Assembly: GCF_000002865.3 (NCBI RefSeq)
Contig: NW_001865068.1
Location: 473,537 to 537,536 of the forward strand
Source of the DNA: Monosiga brevicollis MX1
Lineage: Eukaryota; Opisthokonta; Choanoflagellata; Craspedida; Salpingoecidae
DNA: 64,000 nucleotides
Direction of reading: 5' to 3'
The position numbers were made by a program, and so were the translations under genes. This document shows positions 32,865-50,577 of this stretch, one piece after another; positions within the stretch are counted from its first letter, which is position 1, and every line of letters begins with the position of its first letter. The notes beneath the pieces were generated by a model. The model saw only the letters and a list, made by a program, of their open reading frames with translations. It had not been told where the DNA came from and did not search any database.

Positions 32865-35074
32865 ATGATGGCTCCGGGCGTGAGGAGGAGGATGAGGGGG
32901 ATGGGGCTGTTGTTGGGGTCAATGTGCCTGGTTTTGGCTGGGCTGGCGGGGGTGGCTGGGCAAGGTGAGACGGGCGTCGAGCCTATGTTGTATGTGGATG
33001 GTGATGGCACTTTGCACATCAACAGCAGCAGCAGCCGTGATGGGGGCGTCGCGCGCGTGTTGATTGACGGGGTTGACGTTTTACAAGAGCTGGCCGAGCA
33101 GCGTCAGCTGATTGGCTCCTTTGAGAAGACGGTCAACACCCTGGCCGCCATGACGTTGGTGGTTCACTCGGGCGACGTCGGGTGTGACTTGGCAGTCCCG
33201 CCCGGTGTTACTCAGATTCAGGGCAACATCAAGCTCGTGGCGTGTACCGTGCTCACGGCCACCGATCTTATTTGGTCGCTAAGCCGCTTGACCTCGGTTA
33301 CCGGTGACCTTATCATCCAGGTAGGCCTCTGGAAAAAGCAGATCCTTTTGGCCTCAGACTTCCTTTTGGCCTCAGAGCTACTGCTTGAGCTTTAACGGAA
33401 TCGGCTGACGCTGCTGCCGCCGCCACCTTACTCATACAATCAACGCATTGCCTCGCTTCCCTGCACGCATCTGCAGAACACGTTGGGATTGACCAACCTG
33501 GACGCTTTCAGCCAGCTGACCAGCGTTGGAAAAGATCTCTTTCTTCGGGTATTGCACCTCTCGGCTTGATCCTGCCACCCCGCGCTGGTCTGTGTCCGAG
33601 TGCCAGGGACGGGCCCGTTCTCAAGGCTCCATCTGGAATCGTGCGTAGAGCAACGCGGACCTCAGTAATATCAATGGATTACGGGCGCTCAAGCTGATTT
33701 CAGGCAACCTGAACATTTTCGTACGATCACATTATTGTTATCCCTCAGTCCCGATGCGTTTGGCCGCGAGCGTGGACAAGAACGTGCACTCATGTCGTTG
33801 CCATTGTCGTCTCGTCTTCTCCAGAAAATTAATTTGCTGACCAACATTGATAGCCTCTCAAAACTGACTCGAGTTGAAGGCTTTATCCACATTGAGGTCC
33901 GGTCGTCTGCCAATTCGCATCAGGACATAGCCGAAGCATGTTCTGACTCTTTTTTTTTTTTTTTTTTCCCAATTTTCTATGGTCGTTGCCAACCCGATTC
34001 TTCAGAGCAACGCCAATATCGAGCACCTAGATGGCCTGTTCAACTGTACCACCAAACAGGGGTTAGCCGTATCTGTACGTATCGTGGACTTGTCAGCTGG
34101 TTCAAAAACCTCCCCTTGGCAATGGCGGGGTCATGCTGGCGCAGGGCAAGTGGAGCCCATGTGCTCATTTGTTTGGCTGACACATGGTTGATACAGGCGA
34201 ACCTTGCCTTGACCAACATCGATGGCTTGAGCAGAATTACTACGTGTTTATATCTGCGGATCAATGTTTGTCAACACCCATGGCTGTACTTGCTGAATGG
34301 TTCATGGGAAGCAAAGGGCAAGGGTACGCAGCGGCATCTGAACAACGTAAGCTGATTTTTCTGCGTAGGACAATCCGTTGCTGACCAACCTGGATGGACT
34401 TTCCAACCTTTACAGCACGGGCAGCGTCACAATCCAGGTCTGTGTAGCAGAAAGCAATCGCGCTGATGGGGTGGGGGAGTTGATCAGGGCAAGGATTGAC
34501 TCGAAGCTGGTTGAGACCCAAGGTTATTGATTGTTGTTTCTGATCTTGCTTTTCCCAATTAGAACAATGGGAGGCTGCTGAACGTTGACGGTCTGGCTCG
34601 GCTTGACTCTGTATCCTACTACGTGGTAGTTCGCGTACGCCATTCTTCGCGCTTATGGTGCATCTCTTATGAATCTGGTCATAAGCCAAGGGGTATCTTC
34701 TTGTGAGCATGTTGAAAGGCGCTCAACTTGATCTTCTCCTGCGAACAACCCTGTAGAACAACCCTCTGTTGGTCAACCTCATCGGCCTCAGCAACCTCAG
34801 GCACATTTCAACTAACCTCCGCATTCAGGTCAGGGATTTTTTGCCTTTGACCATGGGCCTGGCATGACCGCATCCTCATGGCTTTCTCGTATCTCAGACA
34901 AACGGCAATTTGACAAGCCTCGAGCTGCACAATCTCAACTATGTCGGAACCTATGTGGAAGTGTGTGAGAATCCTTTGCTAAATATGTCGGCAGCTGCTA
35001 GCTTGCTGGCCGGTCTCGGTAACGATTCAGAGTTGTGCCATATCATCACCAACCAGATCCCGTGCCCGTGCTGA
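32865..35074 (+). CDS. Secreted receptor-L-domain repeat protein 1
   Basis: ATG 32865 with a signal peptide (MRGMGLLLGSMCLVLAGLAG). The N-cap exon encodes EPMLYVDGDGTLHINSSSS, VLIDGVDVLQELAEQ and VGCDLAVPPGVTQIQG...ACTVLTATDL. Then nine or so exons each encode one 24-residue repeat, flanked by phase-0 introns: for example 33477-33548 (NTLGLTNLDAFSQLTSVGKD), 33655-33720 (SNADLSNINGLRALKLISGN), about 33826 (INLLTNIDSLSKLTRVEG), about 34375 (NPLLTNLDGLSNLYSTGS), about 34561 (GRLLNVDGLARLDSV) and about 34758 (NPLLVNLIGLSNLRHIS). The pattern NPxLTNLDGLxxLxxVxGxL is that of receptor L-domain beta-helix repeats. A Cys-containing C-cap (VCENPLLNMSAAASLLAGLG...CPC) ends at 35072-35074. No membrane segment, so probably secreted. 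Paralogue of the genes at 45347-47444 and 48699-50577. Confidence 0.75.
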
Positions 35075-35660: not shown

Positions 35661-35738
<78 letters not shown>

Positions 35739-36523
35739 ACACACACACACTTTCCAGATGTCCAGTTGGGTGTCATGTCCCACCTGTAGGGTTTTGTTGG
35801 GGGATGGTTTTTCGTGAATTTGCAGCGTTACTTCGGCGCTTTCATGCTATAGATGCTCGGCAATCCGCTTCAACGCTCTCTTCCGCAATCCGCTCGCTAA
35901 ACCTTACAGTTTCCTCGCTAACTGCTCCTTTCAGTTTCCGCTATCCGCCGCCTTGCTGTAAACGCTCCTTTGCGGTTTCTGCTGTACGCTCGCTAAATCG
36001 ATCAACGCGTTTCCGCTTTATTATTGTGTGTGACTGTGAATGTCAGGACTTTCGTCAGAACTTGATGGCACGAGTGGTTTTATTTTATTTTTTTTTGCTT
36101 CTTTCAACTTTTTTTTTCAACAAATTTTTTATTTTATTTTTTTTTTGGAAGGAAAGGCGGGTGCTTGACGGAGCTCTGCCATTACAGGGGTCAGCAGTGA
36201 CCGGCAGGGAGAGAGAGTCTGGCGACCGCAGAGCAGCGGCAGCAAAGAAGGTGAATACGGACGGGGATTAGGACACGGCGACTGCAGGCCTGAAAATCAA
36301 GGCTGGAGACCTGAGACCCCAAGACCCAGGAGCCAAGACCCAAGGGCTCGAGGCCGGCTCGGCGAGGGGGGGAGGTGTGTGCAAGGCTTGGGCGGAGATG
36401 ATGCGGCGAGTTTGAGCACGGTCCGCGAGCTCGGACTGGCCTGGTTGCCTCGCCCGACTCCTTTTGGTCTCGCTGTTTTCCTCTCCTTCCTTTTGGTGGG
36501 GCGCAACCCAACGTTTGGGCGCA
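35075..36523. other. Intergenic with (CA)n repeat, no gene seen
   Basis: Contains a (CA)n microsatellite at 35662-35750 and T-rich runs at 36080-36150. Between 35845 and 36010 short motifs such as CGCTCGCTAA and CGCTCCTTT recur in degenerate form. It is the upstream region of the receptor kinase; no reading frame with coding character was found. Confidence 0.5.
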
Positions 36524-37384
36524 ATGCGTCACGGCCCGGGCCGAGCAGGCCAGCGGTTAGCGCGGCTGCGGGCCGCGTTACATATTTACAGCTTGCCGCT
36601 CTTGCTCGTGTGCTGTCTTGGTGTCAGCGCGGAGACGTCAACGGTAATCAAGGTGTTCAATGCGCAATTCTCAATTTCTGCCCTGGAGCAATCCCTCACC
36701 AACCGCAATGCCTTTGAGACGTGGTCCAACGCCTGCGGACTACCTCCTTTGATTGTGCTCGATGGCAGTGCTGATAACAACGATGATGGATTCGACGCCG
36801 GTGACGACGATTTTGATACCGCTTCCAGCACTACCCCGCGTCCGACCTCCACCTCTACTCCCATCCCAGGCCTTGAGCATCCTCACCTGTGCCACTTGAA
36901 GCTTGCTGACACGTCTGGCCGGGTTGACCTCACCACAGAAACCCCCAACAAGACGCTGATCTACCCCTCCATCTCGGGTTACCTCAAGGCTGAACTCGAC
37001 CCCTGCGCAAGTACGTTCCTTCCTTTCCGTCAATGCCCCCAGAGTTCTTGCGAGTCCTTGAGCCCACGACGTAGTTGCTGGTGCGCTTACGGTTTGGCTT
37101 CAACCTTGGCGGATGCTGTCCTGCTGTCGCAGAAGCCAATACCTCGTTTGTCTGTCTCGACCACAACCTCAATCTAACCCATCATGCCCGCTTGATGATG
37201 CGCCTCGTTCGGGCCATGAGCTGGCGCCATTTAATGCTTTTGAACGACAACACCTGCACCCTCTACAACCTCCCGGCAGCACTTCAATCTGCTCTGCTGG
37301 AAGCCGCCGAAGCACATGTGGGTCTCCCCAGCTGAACCCCCAAAGTATAAAAATGATCACCCCCGCGTCCTTTGACCCGATTCT

Positions 37385-37422
<38 letters not shown>

Positions 37423-40400
37423 ACACCCACAATAGGACGTTTCCCTGATTGCCCATGAGACGGCTTACGAGGCATCCTGCAGCAACTTGCCCATTCGTGA
37501 ACACCCAATTCATCTTTTCCTAGCCAGTGATGTTTACAGTTCGGCCGTGGCATTCGTGCGCTCGCTCAACTACCACAGCAACGATCCACGGTGCGTTGAC
37601 TTTGCCTCACCCCATGACCTATCTTGATCCGAGTCGAGCTGCTTGCATTCCTCAACGGGTTACGCCTCTCACCTCATCTCACGCCCCAAACGCCATGCTT
37701 TGTGCGTAGCCTGGTTTACCTTTACCCGGAGGATATCAATCCTGTATCCTTTGAGACGCTGCTGACCGCCATGACTCCGTGGGACACGACGGGCGAGCTA
37801 CGTGCCGTGGCCCGTGCACGAACCATCATCGTCACCAGCAAACTGCCTGGTGCGCCGCTCCGCCTACACAAATAGCGTCTTCTTCTTGCCGCATGACGCA
37901 CTCAAGCAAGCTCAGCTCACCTCGCTTCGTCCCTGCTGGCGTTCACATGCCTATCAGAACTGTCCGAGGATCTGCCCGTCACCGCGCTGGCTGACTCCCT
38001 CCTCTCTTTTCTGTCGGGCCGGTGTCCAGAGCTACAGAATCAGCGCTCTGCATTTCAAATGAAGGATGCTGCTGGTAACCCCATGCTGACAGTCCAGGTG
38101 CCTCCCACCGCAGCGCTGCCACACTCTTCAACGACCCAGCGCCTACGCGCTCTCATCTCGGTACTTTACTTCGGGCGCCCAGTCGTTCTACGCCTCGTGC
38201 CGAGCGCTTCTGCTCTCAAGATGGCCCCACTCACTCGCAGCTCTTCTTGGCATGGGGCTAGGAACCGGGCGAAGTTGTATTTTACTCACTCACAGGCCAG
38301 CCGTCCTCGGACCTCATCCTCTTTCCAGCCGAGCCTGATTTGCTCCCAGCTTCGGAATACCCTTTGGTGCTTCGTATTCTCCACGTTGCTTCACGGTACG
38401 CCGGGCCGCATGCTCCCAGACTTTGAAACCAGGACCGTTGACAATCTTCTGACGCGATCTGAAGCTGCGCTGACCTGATCCTCGCGTCACGCTTGGTAGG
38501 ATCGGACCTCCCTTGGAATACGGTGCTGCTGGGGCGGATGCCATGATTGTTGCAGCTTCTGGTACGTAGTTGTCATCAATGTTCTTCTCCACATACCACG
38601 CCTCCCCAATCGGACCGGACCGACGCTTACCCGAGTGTTCACTTTCTACATGTTTCACATCCGCGCGCGCTCCCAACAGAGTTTCTGGCAGGAATATTTC
38701 CAGACATCAAGATTGAGATTGTCCGTGCAGATGTGACGGGCCGAAACTGCAGCGTCATACTAAGTATCGCCGAGCAGCATGCCGTACATCTGGTTGCCGG
38801 CCCGGGCATGTCGGTCTGCGTCTTGCAAGCCATGAATGTCGGCCGCAGCTTGCCTTCGTTGCAATTTATTAGCCCCATCGGCACCAGCGCGGCCCTCTTC
38901 AACACCTCTGTCTACCCAAATTATCTCAGCCTCACCGCGTCCACACTCAAGCTCGGTGCCAACCTCTTCAACCTGGTTTCCGCACTTGGCAAGCCCGATT
39001 GTGTAACCCTTGTTCACGACTCTTTTCTCACCCCCAACGTGGACGTTACGGATCGTTTTCGTTCGCTGCTCAGCGCCGAAGGCCATGACGTGGCACTCGA
39101 CCTTGTCTTTCCCGCCAGCGCCGATGAAGTGCTTGTCGACGAGCTGCTCCGTACCCTTTGGGCCAACGGCACAGGCGTCGTTGTCGTGAGTCTGTACGTC
39201 AAAGCGATTCCTGTTGCTTCGAACAGCCCTTTTTGAACACGTTCTTCCTCATCCGCAGATCTCGCTTCTGCTCCCCAATTGCAGTTATCCAACGCAGTCA
39301 CAGTTGCTGTTCAATCGTGCCTACGATCTAGGCCTGCTTGACACCTCAATATTATGGGTCGCGTCCAGGTTTGCGCTTCCGACATCCGAGTGGGACGTCA
39401 ACGTGCGCCGATCCTTGAGTGGACGCCTCATCTCCATGAACTTGGACACACCCGAGGGTACTTCTCCGTTTGCCGCTCCATTTGCATCTTTCCAGTCTAG
39501 CACGGATCACCGTCGATTTATGGCCCAGATTATCGACCACGCCTGGATCATCAATGTTGCTGAGATCGTCATGATTACAGCGGTGGCAGCTGAACGCGTC
39601 AAGCACACTCACCGGTTTGGACGTGATCTGAACGCGACGCGTGAGCGGCTGCGCGACTCTGTCTATGCCATCCTCGTCAACAACTCGATTCCGGGACTGT
39701 ACTACGACCACCTGAATATCGATGCAGATGGCGAGCTTGGTGCAACAGAAACTGTCATCTTCGATGAGAACGGCGAGGTGGTGTCCATTGGAAATCCCGA
39801 GGGAGACGTCTTGGGCACCTGGTGGCCCCAAGCCCTTTCTTGCGCTGCCCCGCCCCTTCCTACTCCGCCAGTTGGCGCAGCGCTTTCCACCCCAGCTCCG
39901 GTTCAGGCTGTCTCCGACGAGCGAACGTTGATATTGGCCATCGTTCTTCCTCTGGTTCTGTTGGTCCTGCTTGTCCTGTGTCTAATGTTATTTTTTCAAA
40001 GGCGACATCGGCAGCGCGTGGATGTTGCCGCAGCCGTGGATCACTGGCAAACATATTGCCCAGAGCCATTGGTGGCCCCACCCATTCTTGCCCGGCGTGA
40101 CGTTGTTTTAAAGTCTTCTCTTGGCGGTGGTCAGTTTGGGAAGGTTTCCTTGGGCACGCTCCGCCAGGGCCGCGTCATGAGCTGGTCCAAGTCTGCGCAT
40201 GTTGAGGTCGTGTGCAAACAAGCCCGTGTCGGGGACTCTACGACGAGCACAGAGATGCGATTGCTGACTGAGGCAATTCTGCTCAATCAACTGCAAGACA
40301 CGATCCACGTCGTCAAACTCATTGGCCTTGTTGTCGAGCAACCAGCACTCATCCTCGTGTTGGAGTACTGCTCCCTGGGGGACCTGGCCCACGTGCTGCG

Positions 40401-41453
40401 CTCTGCGGTGGAGGACAACCGCCAAACGTCGTTTGCAGTCAAGATGCGCATGGCCCAGGACATTGCTCGGGGCATGGCCAGCTTGACTCGATACTCCATC
40501 GTGCACAGCGACTTGAGCGCTCGCAACGTATTGGTTGATGAAAACTATCGGTGCAAGGTCTCCGACCTGGGCTTGGCCTACGTTGGCCCGGACATGCAAG
40601 ACGTGGGGACCATCACCGCCATACGGTACGCAGCCCAATGCGCCTCGCAATCCCAAAGCCAAGCTGGAAGTGCCTTTCCAGAAAGCATGGCTCGACCTGT
40701 ATACTCATCACTGCGCACCGCTTCTGACTCGTTATGACAGGTGGGCAGCACCAGAAGTGCTTGAAGGTTCCATCGGCCCACAAAGTGATGTCTGGTCGTT
40801 CGGTATCGTACTGTACGTTGCTGAGTCGTGTCAGCTTGACCAGGAAATTGTGGGGGAAGCAGCCGGATTGGCCCCGGGCCACATGTTGTGTCATTAGCCT
40901 CACAACATGGTGCCCTGACCGCCGTTTTGTTTTTGCTGCATCCCCACCTTTGTTCCTGGGCAAATTTAGGTATGAGATTATGACTGATGCGGCAGCACTT
41001 CCGTATGGAAGTCTCTCCAGCTCCGCTGTAGTGGTTGCCGTAAAGGCCGGGTACCGGATGCCGCGTCCTGTGCGCTGTCCCGTGCCTGTGTATGAGCTGA
41101 TGGAGCAGTGCTGGAGCGAGTACCGCGCGCGACCCAGCTTTCTTCATCTTGCGGCCCAACTCTCTAGCTTCACCCCGCAGATGATGGGGAAACACGCCAG
41201 CACCCCATCGGAGCCGCCAATCCAAGAGCCCGTGGTCTCTTCGATTCCAGGCCAATATTCTCAGCTCAAACGCCCGGGCAGTGTGCCCGTCGCGCACGAC
41301 GATGCCCACGTTCAAGGTCAAGGTCATGGTCATGGTCTTGGCCATGATCAGGGTCATGATCATAATCATGATGCCATGTCCCATGTCCTTGCGCGCAAAT
41401 CCAAGCGCCGTAATCTTGATGAAGCCCCTCCCACCTATCTTACGTTGCTATAG
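36524..41453 (+). CDS. Receptor tyrosine kinase with Venus-flytrap ectodomain
   Basis: Multi-exon. ATG 36524 and signal peptide (AALHIYSLPLLLVCCLGVSA). The first part of the ectodomain (36600-38000; NLTHHARLMMRLVRAMSWRH, HPIHLFLASDVYSSAVAFV) and the second (38550-39840; PDIKIEIVRADVTGRNCSVI, VHLVAGPGMSVCVLQAMNVG, LQFISPIGTSAALFNTSVYP) resemble type 1 periplasmic-binding / ANF-receptor folds; the second ends in the typical DHLNIDADGELG...VIFDENGEV. Membrane segment TLILAIVLPLVLLVLLVLCL (about 39927-39990). Tyrosine-kinase domain from about 40090: LGGGQFGKVSLG (P-loop), VEVVCKQA (Lys), LVLEYCSLGDLAHVL, HSDLSARNVLV (catalytic loop), VSDLGLAYVG (DLG), then after an intron WAAPEVLEGSIGPQSDVWSF and YELMEQCWSEYRARPSF. 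HSDLSARN and the C-lobe mark a tyrosine rather than serine kinase. His-rich tail and a final PPTYLTLL; stop at 41451-41453. Exon boundaries in 37000-38500 are approximate. Confidence 0.82.
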
Positions 41454-41636: not shown

Positions 41637-43112
41637 TTAAAATTCGTCTTGCAGCTCCAAAGCCCAAGCAATCTCAGCGTCCCAAGGTGATATGGCAGGC
41701 ATCACGTTATGATATTGGACCACAGGCCAGCCCAAATCGGTAAAATCCTTCTCACAAAGATGCTTGGTGAGCTCTCGGACGTCCATTGGCAAAGTTTGCA
41801 TAATATTATACGCTTCCACTAGGTCACGACGTCGACGCGAATGGTGGGCGTCAAACTGCTCCCGTGTCCCAAAGTACCGGTCTGTACCTCCGTAAAGCTG
41901 CCCACACCGTGCCGCACAACCGTGCGCATCTGCCCCACAGTCGGTCAGACACCAGGCGCAGAATCCACAGCCACACCTGCCACAAGACAGCGCAAAGCAC
42001 CCATCAAAGTCGAAAAACGCTGTCTTGCAACGTGGGCAGGCCAGTGTCAGAATCTTCTCGACAATGTGCTTGCGAGCGTCCTCGGCCTGACGTTGTCGCT
42101 CGTCAAGCTGCGCACGCCTGACTGCTTCACGGGCGGCTTCCTCCCGCAGGCGCTGTTCAGCTTCTCTGTGCGCGGCCTGCTCCGTTTCCAAGCGACGCAA
42201 GTCGTCCAACAGCTTGATTGTTTCGCGCGAAACTTGTTGGGGCAGGTCAAAAAAATCAAAGTCCTTCGCCTTGCATTCAGGCACCGGACAAGGCACGGCC
42301 GAGCCCCGTGCGAGGCGATCATCGCGCGTGGCAATCTCACGGACGTGGTGATCAAAGCAAGTATTGCAGAGAAAGTGCTCTTTGGTGGAACACCATTCCG
42401 GGCGAGTTTGGGGGCAGCTCATCATCCAAACACACACAGCATTCCAAGGGGTTCCTTTGGGATGGTTTTCTCGCGCGCCGCCGTCTTGCAGGTGGCGGTT
42501 TCTGGTCGGGCTTGACGGGATGAAGGAATCGGCAGCGATGTTGCCGCCAATTGTTACAGCGATCGCCGTTCCGGCATTTGGGCGGTCTGTTCTTGGGGTG
42601 TAGCAGTTGGCAATCGAGATCCAAGCAAGCCACTTTCTTTGGGCAACGTTGCGGTGTACGAACTGAGCGAGTATAAGTATTGACCAAAGAAACGAGCGTC
42701 GCCAGACAAAACACATTGAAGACCATCTTGAAGTGACAGTAGGCCAAAGCACCAAGCGCGATCAGACTGAAAAAAACAGCAGCGCGGAGTGCGTAGTGGC
42801 GGGCTTTGTGATCAGGGGCCGGGGCCCTCAGACAGGAAAAATGAATCAGCTCAAAGCAGCTCTTGGCCAACGCAAACGTCAATTCTCCCAATTTGAGCAA
42901 ACACCAAGCACAAGCGGCCAAGCCATTGTCCAAGCAGGCTTTGCAAAAAGCAGCGCCAGATCCTGGAGTGTTGCCAGAAAACGAGAAGAAACAGCGAAGA
43001 CTGCACGGATGCAGCTCTTGAAAACCGAGGCCAACCTGCCGCGCATCGCCAGGCCCACAACCCCCAATACTAGCCAGACGACCAGCATGTTGAGATCGAT
43101 CATCAACCACAT
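41637..43112 (-). CDS. RBR-type E3 ubiquitin ligase paralogue A, membrane-anchored
   Basis: Minus strand. ATG 43112-43110 opens a hydrophobic segment (DLNMLVVWLVLGVVGLAM). A donor inside GGCAG|GTTGG and acceptor TTTTTTTCAG (about 42765) would join it in frame to a second hydrophobic segment (SLIALGALAYCHFKMVFNVF) and then to one or two Cys/His clusters (RCPKKVACLDLDCQLLHP; CRNGDRCNNWRQHRCRFLHP), which look like CCCH fingers. Next the RING start ECCVCLDDELP, a one-base frame break, then CSTKEHFLCNTCFDHHV, a charged helix, and the IBR/RING2-like LACPRCKTAFFDFDGCFALS-CGRCGCGFCAWCLTDC. The C-terminus diverges from paralogue B and ends ...DAEIAWALELQDEF, TAA 41639-41637. Probably transfers ubiquitin; the frame break makes function uncertain. 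Confidence 0.6.
41828..42645. repeat. 818-bp duplicated block, copy A (partner 43892-44709)
   Basis: Matches 43892-44709 at a constant offset of 2064 bases. Translations of both strands across it are the same in the two copies, and every stretch I compared by eye was base-identical. Outside the block the homologous flanks differ clearly. Covers the RING/IBR part of both E3 genes. Confidence 0.85.
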
Positions 43113-43406: not shown

Positions 43407-45066
43407 TCACCGGTATTCCATTTCCAACGCCAAAGCAATATCAGCATCCCAGCGTGGGTCTACAGGCGGTGGACGGGCACGCATTGGTCGAGCAGGTAAG
43501 TGGCGCTCTCTTTCTCCTTGTCTCACGTAGTCAGGAATTCCGCCCATAGGATCTGCAACGACTAATGGTGGACGATTTCGTGCGCGCAGAACTGGTCGAT
43601 GTAGTACATCTACATCCATGAATGGAGCCGGTGGATTCCTTCCGATGGGCCCTACAATAACCTCAGGCCCTCTTGGAACCAAGCCGTAAGCCCCTTGACG
43701 AGCTGCCTGCCGCCTTTCCGGGACAAAAGCGGCGGCTTGCAGTGGTTGGGCCTGGGCCTTTGCTTTGTCGACGTGATCCTCTTGACGGACCGGGCGCCAG
43801 CCCATATCAATAAAATCCTTCTCACAAAGATGCTTGGTGAGCCTTTTGACTTTTTGGGGCAAAGTCCGCAAATAAGCTTTGACTAAGTCTTGACGTCGAC
43901 GCGAATGGTGGGCGTCAAACTGCTCCCGTGTCCCAAAGTACCGGTCTGTACCTCCGTAAAGCTGCCCACACCGTGCCGCACAACCGTGCGCATCTGCCCC
44001 ACAGTCGGTCAGACACCAGGCGCAGAATCCACAGCCACACCTGCCACAAGACAGCGCAAAGCACCCATCAAAGTCGAAAAACGCTGTCTTGCAACGTGGG
44101 CAGGCCAGTGTCAGAATCTTCTCGACAATGTGCTTGCGAGCGTCCTCGGCCTGACGTTGTCGCTCGTCAAGCTGCGCACGCCTGACTGCTTCACGGGCGG
44201 CTTCCTCCCGCAGGCGCTGTTCAGCTTCTCTGTGCGCGGCCTGCTCCGTTTCCAAGCGACGCAAGTCGTCCAACAGCTTGATTGTTTCGCGCGAAACTTG
44301 TTGGGGCAGGTCAAAAAAATCAAAGTCCTTCGCCTTGCATTCAGGCACCGGACAAGGCACGGCCGAGCCCCGTGCGAGGCGATCATCGCGCGTGGCAATC
44401 TCACGGACGTGGTGATCAAAGCAAGTATTGCAGAGAAAGTGCTCTTTGGTGGAACACCATTCCGGGCGAGTTTGGGGGCAGCTCATCATCCAAACACACA
44501 CAGCATTCCAAGGGGTTCCTTTGGGATGGTTTTCTCGCGCGCCGCCGTCTTGCAGGTGGCGGTTTCTGGTCGGGCTTGACGGGATGAAGGAATCGGCAGC
44601 GATGTTGCCGCCAATTGTTACAGCGATCGCCGTTCCGGCATTTGGGCGGTCTGTTCTTGGGGTGTAGCAGTTGGCAATCGAGATCCAAGCAAGCCACTTT
44701 CTTTGGGCATTGCGCGCAGCGATCGGGTGGGTGTGTCAGCGCACACAAGAATTCGCGGCAACGAGCTTTCCGTGGACAGTGCTTATTTTTTGGAGCATGA
44801 CTCTCGCATGACTTGGAGCTTCGACCTTGATGGTAAGTTTCATGAGCGGGGTCTTTCGGGCTTGCCCTCTGTCGTGGATGCAGATCCCTGCACGCTTCGA
44901 CATGGCAGTGCTTGCCCCGCTTGCAGATAGGTGGGCGCTCAGCCGGATGCCAAAGCTTACACCCGACATTGTAGCAGTCCTTGGCGTATCGGCAGCGCTG
45001 GCCATGGGTTGAGCGCGTGCCAACTTGGGCCATGTCGCCGATCTCCTCCAAACCTGAAAAGTACAT
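43407..45066 (-). CDS. RBR-type E3 ubiquitin ligase paralogue B with CCCH fingers
   Basis: Minus strand, ATG 45066 (alternative in-frame Met at 45033). The N-terminal half is a series of Cys/His clusters: CRYAKDCYNVGCKLWHP, CKRGKHCHVEACRDLHP, CPRKARCREFLCALTHP, CPKKVACLDLDCQLLHP and CRNGDRCNNWRQHRCRFLHP, i.e. five C-x5-C-x4-7-C-x3-H fingers like those of Nab2/ZC3H14 RNA-binding proteins. A basic linker (PPPARRRRARKPSQR) leads to the RING start ECCVCLDDELP, a one-base frame break, then CSTKEHFLCNTCFDHHV, a coiled charged helix (about 44320-44140) and the RING2-like CPRCKTAFFDF...CGFCAWCLTDC. A Pro/Arg-rich tail ends DPRWDADIALALEMEYR at 43407. Likely an RNA-linked ubiquitin ligase if the break is bypassed or absent in the mRNA. 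Confidence 0.65.
43892..44709. repeat. 818-bp duplicated block, copy B (partner 41828-42645)
   Basis: Second copy of the block, same orientation, offset 2064 bases. Left limit at GACGTCGACGCGAATGG; right limit at CTTTCTTTGGGCA, after which A continues with ACGTTGCGG and B with TTGCGCGCA. Confidence 0.85.
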
Positions 45067-46545: not shown

Positions 46546-47444
46546 CAACCCGCGCTGCGAACCCTTCAACTGGCTCAGGGCACAGGTCATGTACTGGCTC
46601 GCAGTGACAGAGCATGAAAAAAACAAACCGACCGAAATCATCAGAAATTCGCCGAGCACGCTCAGACTACGCAGGCCATCGAGGTTGACAAGCTCGGAAT
46701 TTCTCTGTCGGCAGCGCCACCGAGTCGCCAGCAGAAAGGCACGCCTGAGACAAGATGTTTTGCAAAGAAGAACATTGCATTAGCGAAACGCCTCACCTCA
46801 ACCGCGAGATAACCCCCGATCATGGTGAGCTTGCTCAAGGCGGTGATGTTTGCGAAAAACCGGTTGTCCTGTAGCCGTAAAAACGATGGAGAGCTGCGCG
46901 TGAGTGACGACCTCGGCGAGAAGCTCAGGAGAACAAGAAGACAGAAATGACACAGGCCTCTCTTTGCTAGCCCCACGCGCATCCACAAGGCCTGCAGAGC
47001 AGATGGTTCATTTTTCGATCGCACCGCAATTTCGACATTCCCCGAGACATGGACGAGATTCTTCAAGTTTGGCAGATGGGCCGCGGCCGTGGCATTGCAG
47101 TCATGCAGTTCAAGGCTGCCCACAACGTGTGTGACGGCAGGGTTCACCTCGTCAAGATTGCACCCAACATCCCCATTGTGGATCAACGGCGCCGGCGGTA
47201 TGGGTGGCAGGGTGGATGGCGCCGAGGTGGTGTGCGCTTGCCGCTCGCAAGCCGCTCGCAACGATTCCAGCTCCTGCAAAACATCCACGCCGTTCAAAAT
47301 GATACGCGATCCGCCCAGGTTCGAGCTGGTGATGTGCAAGTGTCCCTCCGCATCCACCTCAATCGTAGCCTCATCCGTACTCGTCACCGTGCCTGCAAGG
47401 ACCACCACCACCGCCATTCCAAACACCGCCCAGAGTGACCTCAT
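45347..47444 (-). CDS. Secreted receptor-L-domain repeat protein 2
   Basis: Minus strand, ATG 47444 with signal peptide (MRSLWAVFGMAVVVVLAGTV). The N-cap has TIEVDAEGHLHITSSNLGGS, RIILNGVDVLQELESLRAAC and VGCNLDEVNPAVTHVVGSLE, aligned with the N-caps of the other two family members. Repeat exons follow: DNRFFANITALSKLTMIGG (about 46865-46800), NSELVNLDGLRSLSVLGEF (about 46705), SNVNLTNVDGLNHLDQIGGD (about 46425), SNPMLSSIEMTRLGSITG (about 46290), LASLNGFGNLTIINGSL (about 46125), NNAKLMTVDGWQALESIGD (about 45875) and NNAALTSVAGFGALTAIDTY (about 45715). The C-cap (NPLLTDLDGLSSLSSVG..., CNNPYLN, CPTCGA) ends with TAA at 45349-45347. No membrane segment. A long T-run (minus strand) in one intron corresponds to the A-run at 46510-46544. 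Confidence 0.72.
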
Positions 47445-48698: not shown

Positions 48699-50577
48699 AT
48701 GGTGCTGCGTTGGGTCGTGTACAGTCTGATTGTGGCGACAAGCCTGGTAGTGGTACAGCCTGCGGTGGTTAATGACGAGCCCATCATTGGCGTCGATTTG
48801 GATGGCAACCTCTTCATCAACAGCTCATCAACGGGTGGTAACACGCGCCTGCTGCTGAATGGCGTTGATGTGCTTCAAGAGCTGACCGACATTCGCAACA
48901 TATATGCCGGAAAAACATCAAAAACAACAACGTTGGCTCCCAGCACCACGGCCTCTCCTACAGACATGCCCGTGACGTACACGGGCACTGTCGGCTGTCA
49001 GCTGGCGGGTGTGACCTCAAATGTGACACATATCCAGGGCGACATCAGCCTGAGATCATGCCCACTGCTGACGGCAGATAATCTGCAAGTTTTCAACAAA
49101 CTCGTTTACGTGAGCGGGAGCTTGAGATTTCAAGTAAGCATCGATCTGTGACTCCTGTCTTGATACTGTTCACCACAAAATAAACCCACAAGATTACATT
49201 CCTGACCGATGGTCCGCTTCACGTACGATGGGGATGAATGTACGATTCTGAGATCCTCATTCTATGGTGGGCTGTGAGCAGAATAATAACGCCCTGACCA
49301 ATGTGGATGGGCTTCGAAACATTAACAGCGTCGGTGGCGACTTGGACATTGATGTACGTGACTGCGTGAGGGCTCGTCATTTTTGAATGTCGCGTGGGCA
49401 AGCGAATTGAAATGATGATGATGTTTCCATGAACAACTTATGGGTTGTTTGTTGGCTCGGATAGAACAATGACGCCCTGACCAATGTGGATGGGCTTCGA
49501 AACATTAACAGCGTCGGTGGCGACTTGGACATTGATGTACGTGACTGCGTGAGGGCTCGTCATTTTTGAATGTCGCGTGGGCAAGCGAATTGAAATGATG
49601 ATGATGTTTCCATGAACAACTTATGGGTTGTTTGTTGGCTCGGATAGAACAATGACGCCCTGACCAATGTGGATGGGCTTGGAAACATTAACAGCGTCGG
49701 TGGCGACTTGAACATTGATGTACGTGACTGCGTGAGGGCTTGTCATTTTTGAATGTCGCGTGGGCGAGCGGATTGAAATGATGATGATGATGCTTCTATG
49801 AGCAACTTATTTATTGTTCGTGTTGGCTCGGATAGGAAAATGATAACCTGACCAATGTAAACGGGCTTGGAAGCATCACCAGCCTCGGTGGCGACCTGGT
49901 TATAAGCGTGCGTGGCTGCGTGAAGGCTTGTCGCGTTGACTGTCGCGCGTGTTCTGGACGTGGGTGAACTATGAGGATGGTGTGTGTCTGTGGGCGTCTT
50001 ATGGTTTGTTTGCCTGACTCGGTTAGGAAAATGACGTCCTGGCCAATGTGGATGGGCTTGGAAATATCACCAGCCTCGTTGGCAACCTGGATATTAGAGT
50101 ACGTTGTTGTGTGCGGGGCGTTCCACTTGAAATGGCGTGTGTGTGCGAACGCAGGTAAACAGAATGTGAGGATGGTGTGTTTGTTGGCATCTGATGGATT
50201 GTTTGCCTGACCCGGACAGTACAATGACGCCCTGACCAACGTGGATGGACTTGGAAACATCACCAGCGTCGACGGCACCTTGAACATTAGAGTACGTTGT
50301 TGTGTGAGGAGCATATCACTTGAAATGTCGTGCGTGTGAACATGGTCAAGCAGAGTCTGAGGTTGTTGTGTTTATGAGCGACTTATTGGACTTTTGCTGA
50401 TCTGGACAGTACAATCGCGCTCTGACCAGTGTGAGCGGACTTGGCAGTATGAACTACGTCGACAGCAAGATACAGATTTGCTCGAATAATCAACTCGACA
50501 CATCAACGGTACCAACCTCATTTCAAACGTTGGGATCTTGCCGAGTTATCACCGCCGGAGGCTGCAGGTCTTGTTAA
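48699..50577 (+). CDS. Secreted receptor-L-domain repeat protein 3
   Basis: ATG 48699, signal peptide (WVVYSLIVATSLVVVQPAVV). The N-cap has IIGVDLDGNLFINSSSTGGN, RLLLNGVDVLQELTDI, a Thr/Ser linker (KTTTLAPSTTASPT) and VGCQLAGVTSNVTHIQGDIS. Seven repeat exons start at 49282, 49465, 49648, 49836, 50027, 50220 and 50410; the first six are 72 bases, phase 0, reading NNNALTNVDGLRNINSVGGD and variants. The last joins a Cys C-cap (ICSNNQLDTS..., LGSCRVITAGGCRSC), TAA 50575-50577. Repeats one to three are virtually identical, introns included. No membrane segment, so probably secreted. Confidence 0.77.
49270..50409 (+). repeat. Tandem exon-plus-intron units, 183-193 bp
   Basis: Exon starts are spaced 183, 183, 188, 191, 193 and 190 bases. 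Each unit is a 72-base exon plus an intron of about 110-120 bases. Units 1 and 2 share the same intron text (GTACGTGACTGCGTGAGGGC...) and unit 3 differs at only a few bases. Confidence 0.93.

What the first reader, a model, noticed from the sequence alone, without database searches (positions are those of the whole stretch)
36524..41453. Receptor tyrosine kinase with a Venus-flytrap ectodomain outside animals
The ectodomain segment at 38550-39840 reads as an ANF-receptor/type 1 periplasmic-binding fold, followed by one membrane segment and a tyrosine-kinase domain. This layout is that of the Venus kinase receptors, a family described from invertebrate animals. The upstream 36600-38000 region has similar lobe-like pieces, so there may be two tandem modules. 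In a presumed choanoflagellate this would be either an early relative or an independent fusion, and it suggests a small-molecule ligand.
Basis: partly seen in the sequence, partly recalled or inferred. Interest (0 to 1): 0.75.

Follow-up and report, generated by a model that had tools for sequence, protein, structure and literature searches.

The report
Choanoflagellate double-flytrap receptor tyrosine kinase
In a single-celled relative of animals, this gene encodes a membrane receptor with one clear, and probably a second, clamshell-shaped ligand-binding unit outside the cell and a tyrosine kinase inside, a layout that resembles but probably did not descend from a known family of animal receptors.

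The parts
36524..41453 (+). Whole coding span, 11 exons: 36524-37010, 37133-37317, 37436-37590, 37710-37849, 37958-38160, 38262-38395, 38500-38561, 38680-39193, 39285-40625, 40741-40812, 40970-41453; 1258 aa
   Evidence: exons 8/9 corrected by the C40 paralog; Ka/Ks by exon
36524..36631 (+). Start codon and N-terminal signal peptide (aa 1-36, by hydropathy and eye)
   Evidence: C40, C55 and P0027 also open with a hydrophobic leader, by eye
36632..38360 (+). Module 1, membrane-far ectodomain (aa 37-423): probable second VFT/PBP1 module with a low-complexity acidic and Thr/Pro insert in its first half
   Evidence: Conserved in C40, C55, P0027, P0038; low-confidence structure match to PBP1 ectodomains; sequence profile tests negative
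38361..39831 (+). Module 2, membrane-near VFT/PBP1 module (aa 424-809), mGluR-like
39928..39996 (+). Single membrane helix (aa 842-864)
   Evidence: Hydropathy, (residues 848-870 of the 1264-aa version)
40108..41162 (+). Tyrosine kinase domain (aa 902-1162), spanning exons 9-11
   Evidence: PF07714 E 1.7e-60 (residues 908-1168 of the 1264-aa version); tree
40504..40512 (+). Catalytic-loop HSD in place of HRD
   Evidence: same in C40, HRD in C55
40564..40572 (+). DLG in place of DFG; no paired tyrosines in the activation loop that follows
41313..41375 (+). His/Gly-rich repeat in the cytoplasmic tail, absent from the C40 paralog
41439..41450 (+). C-terminal LTLL, fits a class I PDZ-ligand pattern (S/T-x-hydrophobic)
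   Evidence: motif recalled, binding untested

Best explanation
The gene encodes a choanoflagellate receptor tyrosine kinase with a double clamshell ectodomain. Module 2, an mGluR-like Venus flytrap directly outside the membrane, closes on a small ligand; as in class C GPCRs and Venus kinase receptors, closure rearranges a receptor dimer and brings the two kinases together to phosphorylate each other and partners. Module 1, a probable second and degenerate flytrap, sits on top and likely contributes to dimer contact or allosteric control rather than primary ligand binding. The window gene and its paralog C40 form a divergent pair whose kinase has lost the HRD arginine and the activation-loop tyrosines but keeps the ATP-binding Lys and Glu and the catalytic Asp and Asn, so it is probably active without loop phosphorylation. 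The C-terminal LTLL/LTVL probably tethers it to a PDZ scaffold. Shown: gene layout, module 2 fold family, kinase family, conservation under purifying selection. Inferred: module 1 fold, ligand, dimer mechanism, kinase activity, PDZ tether. The layout most likely arose by fusion within the choanoflagellate RTK radiation, separately from animal VKRs.
Against: Module 1: no Pfam, PDB-profile or profile-profile support; its model has mean pLDDT 43.5, no Foldseek row reaches E 0.001, and the match covers one lobe and the return only. Asp208 and Tyr236 equivalents and the FxR arginine are lost, so an amino-acid ligand is doubtful. Loss of HRD, DFG and YY leaves kinase activity open. No transcript of the window gene itself was seen. 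No animal VKR sequence was available, so independent origin is indirect; grouping with Eph kinases is not rejected (p-AU 0.058). Three of the 7 M. brevicollis kinases put in the tree, and both other S. rosetta ones, fall outside the cluster that holds this family.
Confidence: 0.75

Rival explanations
1. It is an early member of the Venus kinase receptor family, inherited by animals from the common ancestor with choanoflagellates, and the choanoflagellate copies have diverged and gained a second module.
For: Same basic order VFT-TM-TK; mGluR1 Ser165 equivalent kept; C55 keeps HRD, DFG and the YY loop; PMC3703292 postulated an ancient protist VKR (passages).
Against: Kinase groups with choanoflagellate RTKs and grouping with insulin receptors is disfavoured, while VKR kinases are reported close to insulin receptors and VKR VFTs close to GABA-B receptors (abstract passage). 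The best 60 of 301 PDB matches of module 2's profile are mGluR and T1R3 (the other 241 not seen). VKR WFLP motif absent in 7 of 7 rows.
Confidence: 0.2
2. The receptor also carries an N-terminal Recep_L region, as in the public M. brevicollis model, giving a mixed insulin-receptor and VFT ectodomain.
For: MONBRDRAFT_29134 joins window 32.9-35.2 kb to this gene.
Against: The upstream frame has a natural stop at 35072-35074 after ...NQIPCPC; the join skips the signal peptide at 36524 and uses a repeat-rich 'exon' near 35850-35960; C40, C55 and P0027 start with their own leader; other Recep_L-like stretches lie nearby in the window. DNA upstream of the two paralogs reads mostly N, so absence there was not tested.
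Confidence: 0.07
3. Module 1 is not a flytrap but another extracellular domain of unknown fold; only one VFT is present.
For: All sequence profile tests of module 1 were negative.
Against: Predicted order of helices and strands and structure comparison point to the second lobe and return hairpin of PBP1.
Confidence: 0.2
4. The window gene's kinase is a pseudokinase and the receptor works as a partner of the active C55-type receptor in a heterodimer.
For: HSD, DLG and loss of loop tyrosines, shared with C40; C55 is canonical.
Against: ATP-binding Lys and Glu, catalytic Asp and Asn kept, by eye; of the regions compared by domain, the kinase has the lowest Ka (0.139).
Confidence: 0.3

Closest known systems
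Venus kinase receptors (VKR) of invertebrate animals
   Same: Extracellular VFT, one membrane helix, cytoplasmic tyrosine kinase; mGluR1 Ser165 equivalent kept
   Different: Probably two tandem VFT modules; kinase outside the insulin-receptor clade; window gene lacks VKR Arg107, YY loop, HRD/DFG and the WFLP motif
M. brevicollis UTK12 and S. rosetta RTKS (choanoflagellate RTKs noted as VKR-like in PMC3703292)
   Same: Same organism or group and same reported architecture; one of the genes here is probably UTK12 and P0070 may be RTKS (inference)
   Different: Could not be matched by name: the kinome paper is not held and supplements could not be read; the double module is not described in the passages read
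Class C GPCR ectodomains (mGluR, T1R)
   Same: Module 2 fold and part of the alpha-amino-acid site
   Different: No seven-helix domain; coupled to a tyrosine kinase
Tandem-VFT histidine kinases such as EvgS and BvgS (recalled; an EvgS paper seen only in the search listing)
   Same: Two flytraps in a row on a membrane kinase
   Different: Bacterial histidine kinases; flytraps of the other periplasmic-binding type (recalled); no shared descent claimed

Membership tests
Venus kinase receptor (VKR) | Extracellular VFT, single membrane helix, intracellular tyrosine kinase in one protein | tested here: met
   VFT identity
Venus kinase receptor (VKR) | Kinase domain close to insulin receptors (reported) | tested here: not met
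   grouped with choanoflagellate RTKs; p-AU for grouping with InsR 0.00722 and 0.0291. No VKR row in the tree
Venus kinase receptor (VKR) | Monophyly with animal VKRs | not testable with these tools
   No protein labelled VKR among the 120 of 5579 hits listed; all 3 protein searches used
Venus kinase receptor (VKR) | Published kinase motifs GxGxxGxV, VAxK..E, HRD, DFG, paired loop tyrosines, M(A/S)PE | tested here: not met
   Window gene: GGGQFGKV, VVCK, HSD, DLG, no YY, AAPE. C55 has HRD, DFG and YY. The paper itself lists VKRs that lack one or more motifs
Venus kinase receptor (VKR) | VFT Ser66 (mGluR1 Ser165) and Arg107 | tested here: not met
   Ser kept in the window gene, Arg replaced by Ser; 5 of 7 rows keep an Arg there (R107 taken as the FxR arginine, my inference)
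Venus kinase receptor (VKR) | Motif GY(V/I)WFLPxWL in most VKRs | tested here: not met
   by eye: 0 of 7 rows
Venus kinase receptor (VKR) | VFT group close to GABA-B receptors | tested here: inconclusive
   best 60 of 301 PDB matches are mGluR and T1R3; the rest not seen
Venus kinase receptor (VKR) | Activation by L-amino acids, notably arginine | not testable with these tools
   Needs a biochemical assay
PBP1/ANF_receptor fold, module 2 | Profile or fold match over the bilobed domain | tested here: met
   (the fold match is for relative P0038)
PBP1/ANF_receptor fold, module 1 | Profile or fold match over the bilobed domain | tested here: inconclusive
   Structure comparison of a low-confidence model of relative P0027 positive for one lobe; sequence tests negative
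UTK12 (M. brevicollis) / RTKS (S. rosetta) | Same gene or orthologue | not testable with these tools
   Kinome paper not held; supplement look-ups not available

The most novel reading that the evidence does not exclude
Choanoflagellates invented flytrap receptor tyrosine kinases independently of animal Venus kinase receptors and built a family with two tandem flytraps on one membrane kinase, a double-clamshell RTK not found in the listings of my paper searches, with one sub-branch that dropped loop phosphorylation.
Probability: 0.5. Interest if true: 0.65.

Novelty: new variant of a known kind. Interest (0 to 1): 0.48.

Why it matters
If right, the clamshell-plus-tyrosine-kinase solution evolved more than once near the origin of animals, and choanoflagellates sense small molecules through tyrosine kinases of their own making. 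M. brevicollis holds a natural comparison set: one single-VFT kinase (C8), whose EukProt relative P0046 keeps the Ser, Thr, Asp and Tyr of the amino-acid site; a canonical double-VFT kinase (C55); and a degenerate double-VFT pair (window, C40). That makes ligand sensing and the role of the second module directly testable. It also corrects a public gene model that lacks the membrane helix and the ATP loop.

Tried and rejected
Exon choices: an early model had wrong boundaries (one search gave stops; one search listed alternatives for exon 6); exons 8/9 were fixed only after C40 was found. Calls that used the earlier 1264-aa version, six residues longer at that junction, include 15, 16, 20, 29, 37, 38, 42, 45 and 46; the kinase and module 1 letters are the same in both, and I judge that no conclusion depends on it, but those calls were not rerun.

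Module 1 by sequence: Pfam on C55 module 1 (none), Pfam on 4 members at E up to 10 (2 unrelated weak families), PDB profile (0 hits at E up to 10), hhalign against module 2 with 4 and 5 sequences (probability 0.4; 0.3 and 0.1, on a 0-100 scale): all negative.

Homolog search with the C55 ectodomain: no hit at E 0.001, not even the MX1 copy of C55. Whole-protein search: 20 hits, of which P0001 is the gene itself and the others are kinase matches. The kinase-region search found the family.

Structure of the whole P0038: Foldseek's 50 listed rows are all kinases; the flytrap match came from the VIA second look, where 3 of 50 rows are mGluR ectodomains at the top and 47 are kinases.

First thought that C8 (L012) was a class C GPCR: rejected. 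Four exon pieces gave no Pfam match, but tblastn with P0046 gives nine colinear pieces over VFT, membrane region and kinase, 30-44% identity, E 3e-13 to 0.008; a tenth, E 0.22 on the other strand, is chance. Its gene was not modelled.

Recep_L fusion: rejected, see rivals. Upstream DNA of the paralogs is mostly N (4707 of 8001 and 7139 of 8001), so that comparison could not be made.

Tree choice: 50 of the 140 returned proteins were put in by hand, plus the window gene and C55, plus 7 of 8 M. brevicollis kinases (L006 dropped for stops in the frame used): 59 rows; one search added C40 (60 rows). A first quick tree is. The bootstrap had not fully settled.

VFT-kinase rows with Eph: p-AU 0.058, not rejected. 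The four VFT rows without Q as a clade: p-AU 0.274, also not rejected, so Q's exact place in the clade is open. P0046 as sister of the double-VFT clade: 75/73, not recovered.

PDZ-type C-termini: 10 of 135 other returned proteins fit the same loose pattern, so the motif alone is weak; it is kept in the window gene, C40, C55, P0027 and P0038, P0046 ends SVV, and P0070 lacks it.
Full report
Gene and organism. The window lies in a 39.5 Mb genome of 57 contigs. The span 36524-41453 matches MONBRDRAFT_29134 of Monosiga brevicollis MX1: aligned to my model, 1030 of 1043 residues are identical, all of them in five unbroken runs, and the differences are whole blocks that the public splice model leaves out. 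My final model has 11 exons with GT-AG introns and 1258 residues. The public model P0001 is faulty in three ways: it joins an upstream Recep_L gene, it skips the signal peptide, and it lacks residues 802-921, which hold the membrane helix and the ATP loop (its PF07714 match starts at profile position 23). The upstream Recep_L frame has its own stop at 35072-35074.

Support for the model. A paralog on contig C40 (L017) has the same 11 exons in the same phases and ends in the same PTYLTLL. Over 1221 aligned codons identity is 64.3%, Ka 0.276 and Ks about 2.4, that is near saturation; the membrane-far half (aa 37-423) has Ka 0.382 and Ks 2.58, module 2 Ka 0.227, the kinase Ka 0.139. So the duplicates are old and every part is held by selection; exon 5 is the least constrained (Ka 0.678). 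A more distant paralog on C55 (L011, 1289 aa) is colinear at 26.6% over 1056 columns. Searches of the genome with two single VFT modules returned matches at four loci: C27 (window), C40, C55 and C8; the tool calls such counts lower bounds.

The family outside this genome. The kinase-region search with C55 scored 7972 candidates, of which 5579 reached E <= 1e-10 and 120 were listed; four of the 120 carry both PF07714 and PF01094: P0027, P0038, P0046 and P0070. P0027, P0038 and P0046 come from EukProt and bear assembler-style transcript names; P0070 is Salpingoeca rosetta, named 'TK/EPH'. That the EukProt rows are choanoflagellates is inferred from their place in the tree. P0027 (1316 aa) and P0038 (1141 aa, cut at its N-terminus) have both ectodomain halves; P0046 (876 aa) has one VFT; P0070 has module 2 and looks truncated at the N-terminus and in the catalytic region.

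Ligand site. Aligned to mGluR1, the window gene keeps the Ser165 and Thr188 equivalents, and has Thr at Asp208 and Pro at Tyr236; P0046 keeps all four; P0070 keeps none of the four. The arginine of the FxR motif is Ser in the window gene and C40 and Arg in the other five rows. PMC2680970 (passages read) lists Ser165, Thr188, Asp208, Tyr236 and Asp318 as the mGlu1 residues for the alpha-amino-acid groups. Asp318 was not covered by the aligned segment.

Kinase. The catalytic parts that I could name by eye are present (ATP-loop glycines, Lys, Glu, catalytic Asp and Asn), but HRD is HSD, DFG is DLG and the loop lacks paired tyrosines, in the window gene and in C40 alike. C55 and P0046 have HRD. 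P0027, P0038 and P0070 lack the HRD arginine (HMD, HTD, HMD); C55, P0027 and P0038 keep YY. In the 59-row tree the four double-VFT kinases then in hand plus P0070 form a clade (99/95) inside a cluster of 27 rows (98/92) whose named members are all M. brevicollis, M. ovata or S. rosetta, the rest being unnamed eukaryotic or metagenomic rows; insulin receptors and all other named animal kinases fall elsewhere, and so do 3 of the 7 M. brevicollis kinases (L001, L004, L008) and S. rosetta P0036 and P0072. Holding VFT kinases with insulin receptors costs 40.2 log units, p-AU 0.007; with C40 added, clade support is 99/98, the cost 37.1 and p-AU 0.029. No VKR row could be included.

Print record. PMC3703292 (passages; sections 7 and 8) already states that UTK12 of M. 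brevicollis and RTKS of S. rosetta have VKR-like architecture; PMC4026697 repeats it (passages). [quoted passage not shown] PMC8662651 has no hit for venus, VKR, ANF or periplasmic (term search of main text). Searches for a double-flytrap receptor tyrosine kinase, judged from listings (one search listed 20 of 55), showed none; the library lacks most subscription papers and the M. brevicollis kinome paper is not held.

Conclusion. It is a new variant of a known kind: a VKR-like receptor by layout, not a VKR by the defining features I could test, and most likely a choanoflagellate invention with a second ectodomain module.

Noticed in passing
G000 C8 (L012:4047-8460): A fourth flytrap receptor tyrosine kinase, with one VFT, colinear with EukProt P0046; its VFT reads GPSTSSC and FFR at the matching places.
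   Followed up: partly
window 32868-35074 (+): Stand-alone Recep_L-domain gene with natural stop, fused to the RTK in the public model.
   Followed up: partly
window 46797-47444 (-) and 48777-49148 (+): Further stretches similar to the Recep_L gene at 32.9-35.1 kb, so perhaps a local cluster of such genes.
   Followed up: no
window 41637-42761 (-) and 43407-44735 (-): Two neighbouring frames with long nearly identical cysteine-rich stretches (CVWMMSCPQTRPEW, CPRCKTAFFDFDGCFALSCGRCGCGFCAWC), looking like a recent tandem duplicate of a RING/IBR-type gene (motif recalled).
   Followed up: no
window 41313-41375 (+): His/Gly-rich repeat in the cytoplasmic tail, absent from the C40 paralog; could bind metal or be neutral repeat growth.
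   Followed up: no
window 35661-35750 (+): Long CA repeat and, further on, T-rich runs between the Recep_L gene and the RTK, which may have misled the public gene model.
   Followed up: no
P0027, P0038, P0070: Several family kinases lack the HRD arginine (HMD, HTD, HMD) although P0027 and P0038 keep the paired loop tyrosines.
   Followed up: partly
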